A stretch of DNA of 5,857 bases, from the NCBI GenBank assembly GCA_945906835.1, contig CAMDRL010000088.1, forward strand, positions 1 through 5,857. Reading direction: 5' to 3'. This stretch comes from Rickettsia typhi (GTDB taxonomy: Bacteria; Pseudomonadota; Alphaproteobacteria; Rickettsiales; UBA1997). Position numbers and translations under genes: made by a program. The notes under the pieces were generated by a model. It ran no database searches and was not told the origin of the DNA. It saw only the letters and a list, made by a program, of their open reading frames with translations. Positions 2,504 through 5,281 of the stretch are shown here, one piece after another. The first letter of the stretch is position 1. Every line of letters starts with the position of its first letter.

Positions 2504-2612
2504 TTAACCTTTGGTTGAGCGTATTCAAAACCATCGGAAGATTCCTTCTTCGATATTAACTCGCGGTGCAAGAACCTTCCGTTGGTTTCGACTACGCTCA
2601 ACCAACGGTTAA
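2504..2612. repeat. REP-like inverted pair, downstream side of the nuclease gene
   Basis: The two 41-base arms, 2504-2544 and 2572-2612, are inverted copies of one another with about five mismatches. Each arm contains a 30-base unit (2508-2537 and 2579-2608) whose core is GGTTGAGCGTAGTCGAAACC or a close variant. The unit at 2579-2608 is itself a hairpin, with a 9-base stem CCGTTGGTT/AACCAACGG and a loop containing GTAG; the unit at 2508-2537 has lost part of that symmetry. The structure is therefore a palindrome made of two palindromes, like a paired REP (BIME) element. It begins 3 bases after the stop codon of the GIY-YIG gene. Confidence 0.9.
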
Positions 2613-2615
2613 TGT

Positions 2616-2921
2616 TTACCCATCAAAATTTTCTGAACTAGAATTGTTTCTACATTTTGCAAATTCTTGAATTGCTTTCAAATCTTTATTAATTAAAGCG
2701 ATTCTCTTTTTTCTACTCCAACCTTGCACTCTTTTCTCAAAAAGAAAAGCTTCATCGATTCTCTCAAATTCTTCTGAAAATACTAATTTCACTGGTAATC
2801 TTGCTTTGGTATAAATAGCTCCAAATCCATTTTGATGTTCCCATAAGCGGCGATCAAGATCAACTGTGCTGCCTATATAAAATGACTTGTCGCTGCATTC
2901 TAGAATATACATGTGAGGCAT
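2616..2921 (-). CDS. Stand-alone GIY-YIG nuclease domain protein
   Basis: This is a 101-residue single-domain protein of the GIY-YIG nuclease superfamily, small UPF0213/YhbQ-like or URI type, expected to nick or cut DNA with one metal ion. The first signature strand is MYILEC (4-9, Tyr5), in place of GIY, and the second is FYIGST (14-19, Tyr15 and Gly17). DLDRRLWEHQ (21-30) supplies the conserved Arg and His. YTKARLPVKLVF (37-48) follows, and FEKRVQGWSRKKRIALI (61-77) carries the predicted metal ligand Glu62 and the family's KR..GWSR..K hallmark. All expected catalytic positions are present, so the enzyme looks intact. There is no extra DNA-binding domain as in homing endonucleases. I kept the ATG at 2921; an ATG three codons later (2912) is equally possible because neither has a clear ribosome site. 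The gene is bracketed by REP-like inverted pairs, which suggests a role tied to those repeats (inference). Confidence 0.9.
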   Translation of the reverse strand: MPHMYILECSDKSFYIGSTVDLDRRLWEHQNGFGAIYTKARLPVKLVFSEEFERIDEAFLFEKRVQGWSRKKRIALINKDLKAIQEFAKCRNNSSSENFDG

Positions 2922-2951
2922 GGTGTTTGTAGTGTTAGTTTTTAATCATTA

Positions 2952-3074
2952 AATACCGTTGGTTGAGCGTAGTCGAAACCATCAGAAGGATCCTGCTGCA
3001 AGGTTGAAAAGCTCTTTTAACATAATATGGCAAGAGCCTTCCGTTGGTTTTGACTACGCTCAACCAACGGTTTA
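2952..3074. repeat. REP-like inverted pair, upstream side of the nuclease gene
   Basis: This is the second copy of the nested palindrome. The arms 2952-2992 and 3034-3074 are inverted copies with few mismatches, and the similarity continues weakly to 2995 and 3031. The 30-base units are at 2956-2985 and 3041-3070. The latter keeps the full 9-base stem CCGTTGGTT/AACCAACGG with GTAG in the loop. The 38-41 bases between arms here differ from those of the other copy and contain a small imperfect hairpin of their own (GTTGAAAAG/CTTTTAAC, 3003-3021). It lies 46 bases after the stop of the last lipoprotein gene and 30 bases before the nuclease start. It could also act as a transcript 3' end stabiliser for the lipoprotein operon. 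Confidence 0.9.
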
Positions 3075-3120: not shown

Positions 3121-3654
3121 TTACCACAAACCGCCACCACCACCCACACTAGCTCCATATCTAGTGTCACCTTTACCATTTATTTTCCAGACATTTCCAA
3201 TACTATGTTCAGCTGGATCGTATCTTTCTTCCCCTGGAAGTTTAGGTGTCATGGCAGCAGTTTGTAAAATACCTAAAGAAGAGTGGCGACAAAAGACATG
3301 AGCGCTCCAGAAAATGGTATTATAATCACTAAGATTTTTTCTAATTTCTGCTGGATTATCCCAATTAACTTTTTTCAATTCTTTTTTATAACGATTTCTA
3401 ATTTTTTGAATATCGGGATTAACAGAAGTAATATCTGGATCTCTGCTCCAAGTATAAAAATTATGAAAAAACCCTGTAGAGAATTGAGTTCCAAGACCTG
3501 ACTGACATCCATGATTCCATCCTAAATTAAATCCCGGAGATCCGCCTTTTGGCATTTGTCTGAATATTAAATATCCGTGTGGCTTATACCAATTAGACAC
3601 TGAACAATTTGTTAAAAAACAAATTAATAAAATTATTAGATTTTTCTTAATCAT
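3121..3654 (-). CDS. Putative lipoprotein, fifth of tandem paralogue array, Gly-rich end
   Basis: This is an unrecognised secreted protein of 177 residues. The start is placed at the ATG at 3654 because MIKKNLIILLICFLTNC is a clean signal peptide. The longer open frame would overlap the preceding gene and put a polar stretch before the signal. The candidate acylation Cys is 17 (LTNC; Asn at -1 is not ideal). Motif 1 is PGFNLGWNHGCQSG (40-53, Cys50) and motif 2 is SDYNTIFWSAHVFC (109-122, Cys122). The segment between them is about 30 residues longer than in the sister proteins and is charged (about 80-108). A further domain after motif 2 ends in SVGGGGGLW. It is the last gene of the array, starting 11 bases after its neighbour stops. 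Membership of the family is well supported, and function is unknown. Confidence 0.75.
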   Translation of the reverse strand: MIKKNLIILLICFLTNCSVSNWYKPHGYLIFRQMPKGGSPGFNLGWNHGCQSGLGTQFSTGFFHNFYTWSRDPDITSVNPDIQKIRNRYKKELKKVNWDNPAEIRKNLSDYNTIFWSAHVFCRHSSLGILQTAAMTPKLPGEERYDPAEHSIGNVWKINGKGDTRYGASVGGGGGLW

Positions 3655-3665
3655 ATTTGTGGTAT

Positions 3666-4208
3666 TTATTGACCGAATATTTGTCCAGCAGAACCACCTG
3701 CCCATAGTGGGTTGGCGCCCATCAAGCTACCACTGGGACTACCACCATTTAATACGCCCATAAAAGCACCAACATCTCCTCCAACCGAACCTCCTAAAGA
3801 TCCACCACTTCCGCCAAAAAATCCGCCCCAAGCACCACCTATATCTCCTGAGTTAAATGTTGAATCATAACCATAAGGATTAATTGCTCTGTCCCAAGAA
3901 CCAACAGCACCAGTTGTGGCAGAAACAGATTGCTGGAAGCACCAAGCATATCCTCTGGAATGACCAAAGCGATATTCAGAATTACCAATCAAAGCTGGAT
4001 CATATTTGTATTTGTTCTTGTTGCGATAAAACACGTTACTACGGGAATAAGTTGAAGCTGAACATCCATCCTTAAAACCTCTTTGAAAGGTTGGTGTTCC
4101 ATCTGGAATGTTAGGATTTGTGCCGCCGTAGAAAGGTGTGTTGGCGTTAGAAAACCATTTGCAGCCAGTAATTTGCAGAAGCAAAATGATCAATATAACT
4201 TTTTTCAT
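3666..4208 (-). CDS. Putative lipoprotein, fourth of array, long glycine-rich tail
   Basis: This is an unrecognised secreted protein of 180 residues. The lipobox is ITGC with Cys16 after a short Lys-led hydrophobic segment, a good lipoprotein signal. Motif 1 is PTFQRGFKDGCSAS (39-52, Cys49), preceded by IPDG as in the second gene of the array. The middle stretch SNVFYRNKNKYKYDPAL resembles the third gene. Motif 2 is SEYRFGHSRGYAWC (77-90, Cys90). Unlike its sisters it then has a tail of about 90 residues. Residues 122-174 are strongly glycine-rich (GG.WGGFFGG.GGSLGG pattern) with many GxxxG spacings, which suggests a glycine-zipper or surface-exposed low-complexity segment. Its ATG directly follows the TAA of the preceding gene with no gap, which suggests termination-reinitiation coupling. 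Function is unknown; an envelope location is inferred from the signal. Confidence 0.78.
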   Translation of the reverse strand: MKKVILIILLLQITGCKWFSNANTPFYGGTNPNIPDGTPTFQRGFKDGCSASTYSRSNVFYRNKNKYKYDPALIGNSEYRFGHSRGYAWCFQQSVSATTGAVGSWDRAINPYGYDSTFNSGDIGGAWGGFFGGSGGSLGGSVGGDVGAFMGVLNGGSPSGSLMGANPLWAGGSAGQIFGQ

Positions 4209-4568
4209 TTATCTATATCCACTAAATGTTGAGCTCCAAATTGAGCTTTTTAACTTAACATAATCTCTTCTGTAACAATACCAAAAGGCGTTACTCCAAG
4301 CTGTTTTATATTCAGAGGAATATGCCATTTTATAGCCATCAACAGCATTATTTCTATAGAACATTTTGTAAAAAGTATTGCTACCAGCTGACATGCCAAC
4401 TTCACAGCCATCAGCCCAACCTTGTCTAAATTCAGGAGATGCTTTTTCTAAATCTTTTTGAAATTCTTCACCAGGTCTTTCAGGGAAAATTCTTGCAATT
4501 GACTTTGCGCAAGAAGAAAGATTAAGAGCGATTAATAAAAATAAAATTTTCAATATAATTTTTTGCAT
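4209..4568 (-). CDS. Putative lipoprotein, third of array
   Basis: This is an unrecognised small secreted protein of 119 residues. The signal ends in LSSC with Cys20 as the likely lipid-modified residue. Motif 1 is PEFRQGWADGCEVG (45-58, Cys55). Motif 2 is SEYKTAWSNAFWYC (85-98, Cys98), with Ala replacing two of the Gly positions. The linker carries NTFYKMFYRN, related to the SNVFYRN stretch of the next gene. After motif 2 there is a short basic and Ser-rich end. It starts 12 bases after the previous stop and ends flush against the next ATG, so it is almost certainly in one transcript with its neighbours. No enzyme motif is visible. A structural or accessory envelope role is a guess. Confidence 0.78.
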   Translation of the reverse strand: MQKIILKILFLLIALNLSSCAKSIARIFPERPGEEFQKDLEKASPEFRQGWADGCEVGMSAGSNTFYKMFYRNNAVDGYKMAYSSEYKTAWSNAFWYCYRRDYVKLKSSIWSSTFSGYR

Positions 4569-4580
4569 TTTTTAATTTTT

Positions 4581-4925
4581 TTAATCTAGTGCGCCATATT
4601 TGAAGGGGTTGAAATCTACAAACTGAGCAATATGAAGAACACAAGCAAACCAACCTTGCCCCCAACCAGTTTGAAATACGGGATCATGTTGATAGATACC
4701 ATTTCCTAAATCAGGACCTTTAGAAGTTCTGTAAACTGCTGAGTTGGAAAATGCTTTTTGTGCTAAAGCGCTTTTACAACCAGCATGCCATCCAGCTTGA
4801 TATTCAGGAGGACCATCTGGAACCGCAAGACTCATTGTGATTGGTTGATAAAAACCTGCATTTTCAGGCATTCTGCAGCAAGTTAAAGATAATATTATTA
4901 GTAAGATTGATGTAGTTTTTCTCAT
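4581..4925 (-). CDS. Putative lipoprotein, second of array
   Basis: This is an unrecognised small secreted protein of 114 residues. The N-terminus MRKTTSILLIILSLTCC is a hydrophobic signal ending in two cysteines, 16 and 17; either could be acylated, and neither gives an ideal lipobox. MPEN follows directly and is matched by MPES in the first gene. VPDGPPEYQAGWHAGCKS (35-52, Cys50) is motif 1 and PVFQTGWGQGWFAC (82-95, Cys95) is motif 2, one of the best-conserved versions. It lies 26 bases after the stop of the first gene and 12 bases before the third. No strong Shine-Dalgarno is visible before the ATG. Function is unknown. Confidence 0.77.
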   Translation of the reverse strand: MRKTTSILLIILSLTCCRMPENAGFYQPITMSLAVPDGPPEYQAGWHAGCKSALAQKAFSNSAVYRTSKGPDLGNGIYQHDPVFQTGWGQGWFACVLHIAQFVDFNPFKYGALD

Positions 4926-4951
4926 TAGTCTATATTTCTAGTTAACATTTT

Positions 4952-5281
4952 TTACACAACATCCCAGTCTAAAATATAAGTACATTGTTCAAATCCATCC
5001 CACCATCCAGTGTTGTAATCAGGACTTTTTTGCATTCTTTGAAAATCGTATTTTTTATTATTAAAATCAGTAATTAGACCTTTTCCAACGGCTTCCCAAG
5101 CTGATTCGCAGCCATCTTTAAAACCTCTGCCATATTCACTTTCAGTTGAAGGAAAATTTCTTACACCAGTAAGTGGGCGAGGTTTTGCCCCCCAATTCCA
5201 ACTTTCTGGCATTGGTTCGGCTACAATACTACAAGATGCTAAAGATATCGTTAGAGATAATAATAAGATTTTTTTTAGCAT
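4952..5281 (-). CDS. Putative lipoprotein, first of tandem paralogue array
   Basis: This is an unrecognised small secreted protein of 109 residues and the cleanest member of the array. The signal MLKKILLLSLTISLASC ends in the canonical lipobox LASC with Cys17; Ser at +2 would favour outer-membrane sorting under the usual rule. Motif 1 is SEYGRGFKDGCES (48-60, Cys58) and motif 2 is DYNTGWWDGFEQC (88-100, Cys100). The two motifs share the pattern Y-x-x-G-aromatic-x-D-G and look like an internal duplication. Its ATG overlaps the TAA (5277-5275) that would end the full-length glycosyltransferase frame. This is a typical coupled-gene overlap and suggests the array was once translated directly behind that gene. 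Function is unknown. Confidence 0.8.
   Translation of the reverse strand: MLKKILLLSLTISLASCSIVAEPMPESWNWGAKPRPLTGVRNFPSTESEYGRGFKDGCESAWEAVGKGLITDFNNKKYDFQRMQKSPDYNTGWWDGFEQCTYILDWDVV

What the first reader, a model, noticed from the sequence alone, without database searches (positions are those of the whole stretch)
2504..3074. GIY-YIG nuclease bracketed by paired REP-like palindromes: a possible REP/RAYT analogue with a different enzyme
Four copies of a 30-base unit with core GGTTGAGCGTAGTCGAAACC occur as two inverted pairs, exactly flanking one compact, apparently intact GIY-YIG gene. Two of the four units keep a 9-base-pair hairpin with GTAG in the loop, and each pair folds into a larger palindrome. 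REP/BIME elements have this nested design and are linked to RAYT tyrosine transposases. Here a single-domain GIY-YIG enzyme sits in that place, suggesting a nuclease that recognises, spreads or domesticates palindromic repeats. I have an unverified impression that similar GGTTGAGCG-type repeats occur in other bacterial genomes, so the repeat may be known while its link to the nuclease is less so.
Basis: partly seen in the sequence, partly recalled or inferred. Interest (0 to 1): 0.75.

Follow-up and report, generated by a model that had tools for sequence, protein, structure and literature searches.

The report
Nuclease gene with its own palindromes
A small GIY-YIG nuclease gene from a likely Rickettsiales bacterium sits between two pairs of inverted DNA palindromes, and relatives of the gene in at least 13 bacterial phyla lie beside palindromes of the same design, so the nuclease likely recognises and spreads these repeats, a job tied so far to an unrelated enzyme family.

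Summary
Four units form two inverted pairs around an intact 101-aa GIY-YIG gene. A hairpin of the same design (variable stem, conserved GAG...CGA, small loop) lies within 500 bp of 98 of 110 related genes (391 hits; 1.4 in shuffled sequence). Stems covary. Repeat class follows nuclease clade, with exceptions (27 changes on the tree, 60.7 shuffled). In 8 of 13 genomes whose places were listed, many copies lie away from the gene, often as pairs; in 3 of 13 none do. None of 19 RAYT-type transposase loci examined has the motif within 500 bp. In Alphaproteobacteria, CGTC-type palindromes, reported in 2013 to lack a transposase, flank single-domain GIY-YIG genes at 17 of 69 loci (32 hits near, 2 far, 0 at 20 uvrC loci). 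One Flavobacterium site is occupied in 9 genomes and empty in 14. Against: 11 of 17 motif-rich Flavobacterium genomes examined showed no flanked GIY-YIG gene, and among large genomes the gene does not predict repeat number. Binding, cutting and mobilisation are inferred. I call it a REP-like system with a different enzyme class.

The parts
2616..2921 (-). single-domain GIY-YIG nuclease, 101 aa; predicted catalytic residues Y5, Y15, R25, E62 (roles recalled) invariant in the 25-row alignment A1
   Evidence: ORF; Pfam; alignment; AlphaFold2 pLDDT 89.3
2508..2537 (+). palindromic unit 1, degenerate, core 2513-2532 with 2 mismatches
2579..2608 (-). palindromic unit 2, 9-bp stem, begins 7 nt beyond the gene's stop codon
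2504..2612 (.). left inverted pair (units 1 and 2), downstream of the gene
   Evidence: I3; fold z -8.1
2956..2985 (+). palindromic unit 3, 5-bp stem, 34 nt upstream of the start codon
3041..3070 (-). palindromic unit 4, 9-bp stem
2955..3071 (.). right inverted pair (units 3 and 4), upstream of the gene
   Evidence: I2; fold z -10.4

Best explanation
This is a REP-like system in which a single-domain GIY-YIG nuclease likely recognises its own class of folded DNA palindromes and promotes their spread through the genome. Shown by sequence: the gene sits between palindromic units; the units share a hairpin design (covarying stem, GA opposite GA kept, a small loop of a few types); the unit class follows the nuclease clade, with exceptions; in many related genomes further units, often paired, lie away from the gene. 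Inferred: the enzyme binds the hairpin as single-stranded or extruded DNA, cuts next to it, as its fold relative Slx1 does at branched DNA, and repair of the break copies the pair to a new site. The gene between two units would be the autonomous form and the solitary pairs the non-autonomous form. The gene is usually single-copy and, in Flavobacterium, under purifying selection, so it may also serve the host.
For: Hairpin within 500 bp of 98 of 110 GIY-YIG loci: 391 hits near vs 83 in 726 kb beyond, 1.4 in shuffles; loci were found by protein similarity, not by repeats. Stem pairing in cores picked without regard to the stem 97/97/95/87% vs 77/65/43/53% expected; 103 double-change cells vs 28.7 shuffled, 0 of 500. 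Repeat class follows nuclease clade: 27 vs 60.7 changes, 0 of 200 as low. Nearest upstream unit points at the gene in 69 of 86 loci, nearest downstream unit points back in 67 of 90. Copies away from the gene. Y1_Tnp loci: 0 of 19 with the motif within 500 bp. CGTC hairpins: 32 near vs 2 far at 69 single-domain loci, 0 at 20 uvrC loci, 0 of 9 UPF0213-like loci. Occupied/empty site in Flavobacterium. Median dN/dS 0.08. Fold hits: UPF0213, then weaker Slx1 and I-TevI.
Against: No biochemical or transposition data. In G004, G008 and G010 all listed copies lie at the element's own locus, and in G005 and G011 only one lies elsewhere. 11 of 17 motif-rich Flavobacterium genomes examined showed no flanked GIY-YIG gene, and among the 26 genomes of 5 Mb or more the gene does not predict the count: 9 of 9 with it, but also 13 of 17 without it, have 16 or more copies. 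No target-site duplication or precise excision was seen; the Microcystis site is not a clean empty site. 12 of 110 loci lack the strict hairpin; only 27 of 69 alphaproteobacterial single-domain loci show a strict CGTC or GAG-CGA hairpin. The GAG-CGA motif also occurs at 4 of 20 uvrC loci, 5 hits in 98 kb. Sister nucleases L032 and L071 carry different repeat classes.
Confidence: 0.63

Rival explanations
1. The repeats are moved by another enzyme, such as a RAYT, and the GIY-YIG gene is cargo caught between two repeats.
For: Y1_Tnp genes occur in 87 of 121 Flavobacterium genomes; 11 of 17 motif-rich genomes examined showed no flanked GIY-YIG gene.
Against: 0 of 19 Y1_Tnp loci fetched from six motif-rich genomes (of 30 matches there) have the motif within 500 bp; G017 (29 copies) and G066 (61) have no Y1_Tnp match; the pairing of nuclease clade and repeat class is not expected of cargo.
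Confidence: 0.17
2. A free-standing homing nuclease cuts a fixed chromosomal site and spreads by gene conversion; the palindromes are its recognition or recombination sites and multiply only as by-products.
For: GIY-YIG homing enzyme I-TevI is a weak fold hit (E 0.36); the element stays at one locus in 9 Flavobacterium genomes; in G004, G008 and G010 the listed units are only at the gene's locus.
Against: Tens of copies per genome away from the gene in others; flanking genes differ among phyla.
Confidence: 0.13
3. The palindromes regulate or terminate the gene's transcript and are kept for that reason; the nuclease does not act on them.
For: Units abut both gene ends; the downstream unit starts before the end of the stop codon in 46 of 90 loci.
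Against: The same units occur in many copies far from the gene; no Rfam family matches in the window.
Confidence: 0.07

Closest known systems
REP/REPIN with RAYT (TnpA_REP) transposases (PMC3116915 abstract; PMC8266576 and PMC6006769 passages)
   Same: Short imperfect palindromes, in E. coli with a conserved stem mismatch; inverted pairs; dispersed copies; an enzyme gene, often single, flanked by the same units
   Different: Enzyme is GIY-YIG, not HUH tyrosine; no GTAG foot; the Y1 loci tested here lack these units
CGTC-tagged REPs, including R. conorii RPE-4/RPE-6 and Neisseria dRS3 (PMC3733652, passages and part of the Results)
   Same: At 17 of 69 alphaproteobacterial single-domain GIY-YIG loci: C/TGTC tag, stem starting AT, small loop
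   Different: The paper reports no associated transposase gene. The window's own unit bears no CGTC tag
UPF0213-type GIY-YIG proteins (1zg2, 1ywl)
   Same: Closest solved structures, single domain
   Different: The 9 UPF0213-like alphaproteobacterial loci have no CGTC hairpin
Slx1 and I-TevI
   Same: GIY-YIG fold (weak hits); Slx1 cuts branched DNA, I-TevI drives homing (roles recalled, Slx1 also in the entry titles)
   Different: The window protein is a lone GIY-YIG domain

Membership tests
REP/RAYT (REPtron) | short palindromes in many dispersed copies, often as inverted pairs | tested here: met
   in 8 of 13 related genomes with listed places and in Flavobacterium; not in G004, G008, G010; the window's own genome is not held
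REP/RAYT (REPtron) | GTAG tetranucleotide at the foot of the hairpin | tested here: not met
   bases before the window units are TTAA, TTAA, AATA, TAAA; GNAG lies in the loop with N = G46 A19 T8 C4 of 77
REP/RAYT (REPtron) | flanked gene is a Y1/HUH transposase | tested here: not met
   no Y1_Tnp among the 9 window ORFs tested; 0 of 19 Y1_Tnp loci with the motif within 500 bp
CGTC REP superfamily | C/TGTC tag and stem starting AT | tested here: not met
   not met for the window unit; met at 17 of 69 alphaproteobacterial loci; TGTCA precedes units of Flavobacterium clade B
CGTC REP superfamily | no associated enzyme gene, as reported in PMC3733652 | tested here: not met
   32 CGTC hairpins within 400 bp of 69 single-domain GIY-YIG genes, 2 further away, 0 at 20 uvrC loci
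Rickettsia palindromic elements | match to an RPE consensus | not tested
   no RPE consensus was fetched
GIY-YIG superfamily | Pfam match and conserved Y, Y, R, E | tested here: met
   (residue roles recalled)
transposon with TIR and target-site duplication | terminal inverted repeats and duplication at an empty site | tested here: inconclusive
   inverted units at both ends in most loci; empty sites found but too diverged to read a duplication

The most novel reading that the evidence does not exclude
GIY-YIG nucleases are the dedicated enzymes of a second great class of bacterial interspersed palindromes: the GAG-CGA hairpins in at least 13 phyla and the orphan CGTC REPs (hence Rickettsia RPE-4/RPE-6 and Neisseria dRS3). 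They spread palindromes by structure-specific cutting, independently of HUH transposases, each clade with its own hairpin code.
Probability: 0.48. Interest if true: 0.92.

Novelty: new variant of a known kind. Interest (0 to 1): 0.85.

Why it matters
Interspersed palindromes are widespread in bacterial genomes, and in the papers seen here only one enzyme class, the HUH RAYTs, is tied to them. PMC3733652 left open which enzyme serves the CGTC superfamily. A GIY-YIG partner would answer that, suggest a function for many small 'GIY-YIG nuclease family' genes, and offer a testable hairpin-nuclease code in which stems vary freely and the loop class follows the enzyme.

Tried and rejected
Rejected: RAYT as mover (0 of 19 Y1_Tnp loci within 500 bp; two hits lie 1.1 and 1.4 kb away); an Rfam RNA family (none); chance. 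A first CGTC count (29 loci) gave 9 near and 3 far; a second mislocated many genes and accepted GTCG; one search takes positions and requires GTCAT. One locus (L145) was misplaced; one search repeats the count with it corrected and the hits do not change. Microcystis gave presence in 3 and absence in 2 of 12 genomes at one locus but no clean empty site. Searching papers for the repeat letters: one search found 0 papers; one search found 105, of which the 20 listed look unrelated by title. Searches for GIY-YIG together with repeat terms (one search lists RAYT papers) showed no report of the link in the listed titles and abstract starts (searches listed 20 of 222, 20 of 41 and 15 of 41); subscription papers and preprints are not held, so this is weak evidence of novelty. 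Phage and plasmid searches gave only relatives under 60% identity and were not followed up.

Full report
What is in the window. The main ORFs lie on the minus strand: flavin reductase, nuoL, the GIY-YIG gene, five small ORFs without Pfam match, a glycosyltransferase. Four palindromic units form two inverted pairs around the GIY-YIG gene; none is expected by chance. Each pair folds strongly as a whole; two of four units fold strongly alone. The best named relative of the protein is from a Rickettsiales bacterium, 80% identity, and the nearest rows in the tree are L001 and L002, both Rickettsiales. The window's other ORFs have no match in L001 (5.5 kb) or L002 (7.6 kb) apart from a weak glycosyltransferase match in L001. 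The window's own genome is not held, so copies elsewhere in it could not be counted.

The same arrangement elsewhere. The motif TTGAGCGNAGTCGAA (up to 2 mismatches) occurs 270 times in 99.7 kb around the gene (within 500 bp) and 64 times in 666.5 kb beyond. A first hint was that C-terminal tails of several homologues read like the repeat translated (my reading). With 30 Flavobacterium loci added, a structural motif (4-bp stem, GAG, 3-8 nt, CGA, stem) is near 98 of 110 genes: 391 hits in 138 kb, 83 in 726 kb beyond, 1.4 in shuffled near regions (mean of 5 shuffles). Loci with a classified repeat bear names from Pseudomonadota, Thermodesulfobacteriota, Cyanobacteriota, Bacteroidota, Ignavibacteriota, Chloroflexota, Acidobacteriota, Campylobacterota, Cloacimonadota, Calditrichota, Actinomycetota, Spirochaetota and Latescibacterota; many are metagenome bins, so single assignments may be wrong. 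Comparing upstream with downstream flanks without using the motif found the same hairpins and further classes; 41 of 107 loci reach the 99th percentile of 249 shifted controls.

Structure under constraint. Taking one GNAG-type core per locus without regard to the stem (77 loci), the first four flanking positions pair in 97, 97, 95 and 87%, against 77, 65, 43 and 53% expected from base composition, with two to four pair types each. On the 74 distinct units, 84% of cells over six pairs are Watson-Crick (52.7% shuffled; 22-31% when slid), 103 cells show changes on both sides (28.7 shuffled, 0 of 500 reach it), and there are 12 extra pair types (8.5 shuffled, 4 of 500 reach it). Inside, GA opposite GA and a short loop are kept. 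I read this as tandem G.A mismatches capped by a GNA-type mini-loop; that reading is recalled and inferred. E. coli REPs also have a conserved stem mismatch needed for activity (PMC8266576, passages seen).

Nuclease and repeat go together. On a tree of 134 domains (101 columns, 71 of 130 inner branches open, some long branches) the repeat classes, 'none' included, need 27 changes, 60.7 when shuffled, none of 200 as low. Exceptions exist: L001 differs from the window and L002, and the sister pair L032/L071 differs. Within Flavobacterium, clades carry different repeats: GNAG with T-A closing pair, GNAG with TGTC tag, GNAG with C-G closing pair, GNNC, YTG. Six further rows (L103-L106, L109, L110) fall outside these classes but share other flank repeats. 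Placement is regular: with a 3-bp stem, units lie upstream in 86 of 111 loci, downstream in 90, both in 77; the nearest upstream unit points at the gene in 69 of 86, the nearest downstream unit points back in 67 of 90, and the downstream unit starts before the end of the stop codon in 46 of 90. The window has the rarer form, pair-gene-pair.

Genome-wide. The strict 15-mer TTCGRCTNCGCTCAR is found in 10 of 13 genomes reached from loci, 4 to 39 copies, reversed control 0 in all, and in 10 of 10 further genomes, 6 to 93 copies, reversed control 1 in two of them. Not all of this is dispersal. Of the 13 genomes whose places were listed in full or nearly so, eight have many copies away from the gene (G003, G006, G007, G013, G233, G235, G236, G238), two have one (G005, G011) and three have none (G004, G008, G010); for G002, G229-G232 and G234 places were not listed, for G237 only two. 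Many of the dispersed copies are inverted pairs about 30 to 80 nt apart. The best GIY-YIG match (E 2e-42 or lower) is single in each of the 13 genomes; weaker GIY-YIG matches occur beside it in several. The three genomes without the strict 15-mer carry another class at the gene (G001: TCGAGCGGAGTCGAG; G009: YTG) or none that I classified (G012); their genome-wide copies were not counted.

Flavobacterium test, for and against. In 121 genomes, 21 have a match to A1 at 1e-30; 14 of these 21 have 16 or more copies, against 15 of the other 100 (from the counts). The 12 genomes with clades A or B all have 16 or more (median 55), against 17 of 109 others (median 1; Fisher 4e-9); these clades were singled out after I had seen their flanks, so that figure is partly circular. 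Kinship also confounds it: among 26 genomes of 5 Mb or more, 9 of 9 with and 13 of 17 without clade A or B have 16 or more. Of 20 motif-rich genomes (10 or more copies) outside clades A and B, I probed 17 and looked at the best 30 matches: three have a flanked relative (G060, with two gene copies inside a long unit array, G078, G084), one has a decayed flanked copy (G073), two have a single unit near a distant paralogue (G019, G121), and 11 show none. Gene loss with surviving repeats is one reading; another mover is the other.

Other enzymes. Y1_Tnp (RAYT-type) genes are in 87 of 121 genomes. I fetched 19 of the 30 matches in six motif-rich genomes: none has the motif within 500 bp. PMC6006769 (passages) reports a Bacteroidetes Y1 subclass with structures of its own; I did not compare those structures.

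CGTC REPs. PMC3733652 (abstract, passages and the first part of the Results seen) describes CGTC-tagged REPs, including R. conorii RPE-4 and RPE-6 and Neisseria dRS3, and states that they apparently lack a dedicated transposase. From 96 Alphaproteobacteria genomes I examined 69 single-domain GIY-YIG loci, picked by hand from the upper part of the list: C/TGTCAT-tagged hairpins occur 32 times in 69.7 kb around the genes (within 400 bp; 17 of 69 loci) and twice in 107 kb beyond; 0 at 20 uvrC loci (98 kb); 0 of 9 UPF0213-like loci. GAG-CGA hairpins occur 24 times near (12 of 69 loci), twice beyond, and 5 times at 4 of 20 uvrC loci; 27 of 69 loci have either type, so 42 have neither by these strict rules. 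In G147 the gene at 1556809-1557030 lies between two inverted CGTC-1 copies, oriented like the solitary pairs of that genome. Of 12 genomes with 3 or more strict CGTC-1 copies, 10 have at least two GIY-YIG matches (uvrC usually being one), against 36 of the other 84; G178 and G184 have one. Three of the 12 (G143, G147, G186) have a strict copy beside a GIY-YIG gene among the places listed; the list was cut.

Movement and selection. Beside a fabH-like gene (annotation by eye) in Flavobacterium the clade B element fills the intergenic gap in 9 genomes (L089-L097; L098 lies elsewhere) and is absent in the 14 others probed, where the gap is 54-158 bp without the motif. The number of units differs between occupied orthologues. 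In Microcystis the element is present at one locus in 3 of 12 genomes; two more match the left flank without it; unit arrays have grown differently. Eight of ten clade B genes give median dN/dS 0.08 over 27 usable of 28 pairs, with dS high (median 1.35).

Protein. The AlphaFold2 model (pLDDT 89.3) matches two UPF0213 structures at E below 0.001, then more weakly Slx1 (E 0.006 and up) and I-TevI (E 0.36). NCBIfam has no model above cut-off.

Verdict. The repeat-nuclease partnership is shown by sequence; recognition, cutting and spreading are inferred. It works like REP/RAYT but is not a member, since the HUH enzyme and GTAG foot were tested and not met.

Noticed in passing
L003, L006, L007, L009, L011, L013, L018, L020, L024, L030, L034, L035, L044, L069, L071, L074 and others: 28 of 80 GIY-YIG loci show relatives of HsdM or HsdR nearby; in many the element sits just downstream of hsdM in a type I restriction-modification operon. 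A few of the 28 rest on weak matches that may be repeat-coded peptide; the gene names are my reading of the ORFs.
   Followed up: partly
L006, L013, L069: Repeat-like peptides are read in frame inside hsdR/hsdM-like ORFs, as Rickettsia palindromic elements are in Rickettsia genes (the latter recalled).
   Followed up: no
L211, L228 (G060): Two copies of the nuclease gene inside one array of more than 20 units with a period of about 101 nt.
   Followed up: no
window 3121-5281: Five small, lipoprotein-like ORFs in a row with no Pfam match; one (3666-4208) has 90 relatives, those named being hypothetical proteins, some from Rickettsiales.
   Followed up: partly
L245 (G092) and L244 (G126): The intergenic site that is empty for the GIY-YIG element holds other inverted repeats, TGTCATTGCGAG... 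and ...TTCGACGCAAGGAGAAATC....
   Followed up: no
L182, L183 (Microcystis): Units beside the nuclease gene are amplified in tandem with different periods (about 22 and 42 nt) in two genomes.
   Followed up: no
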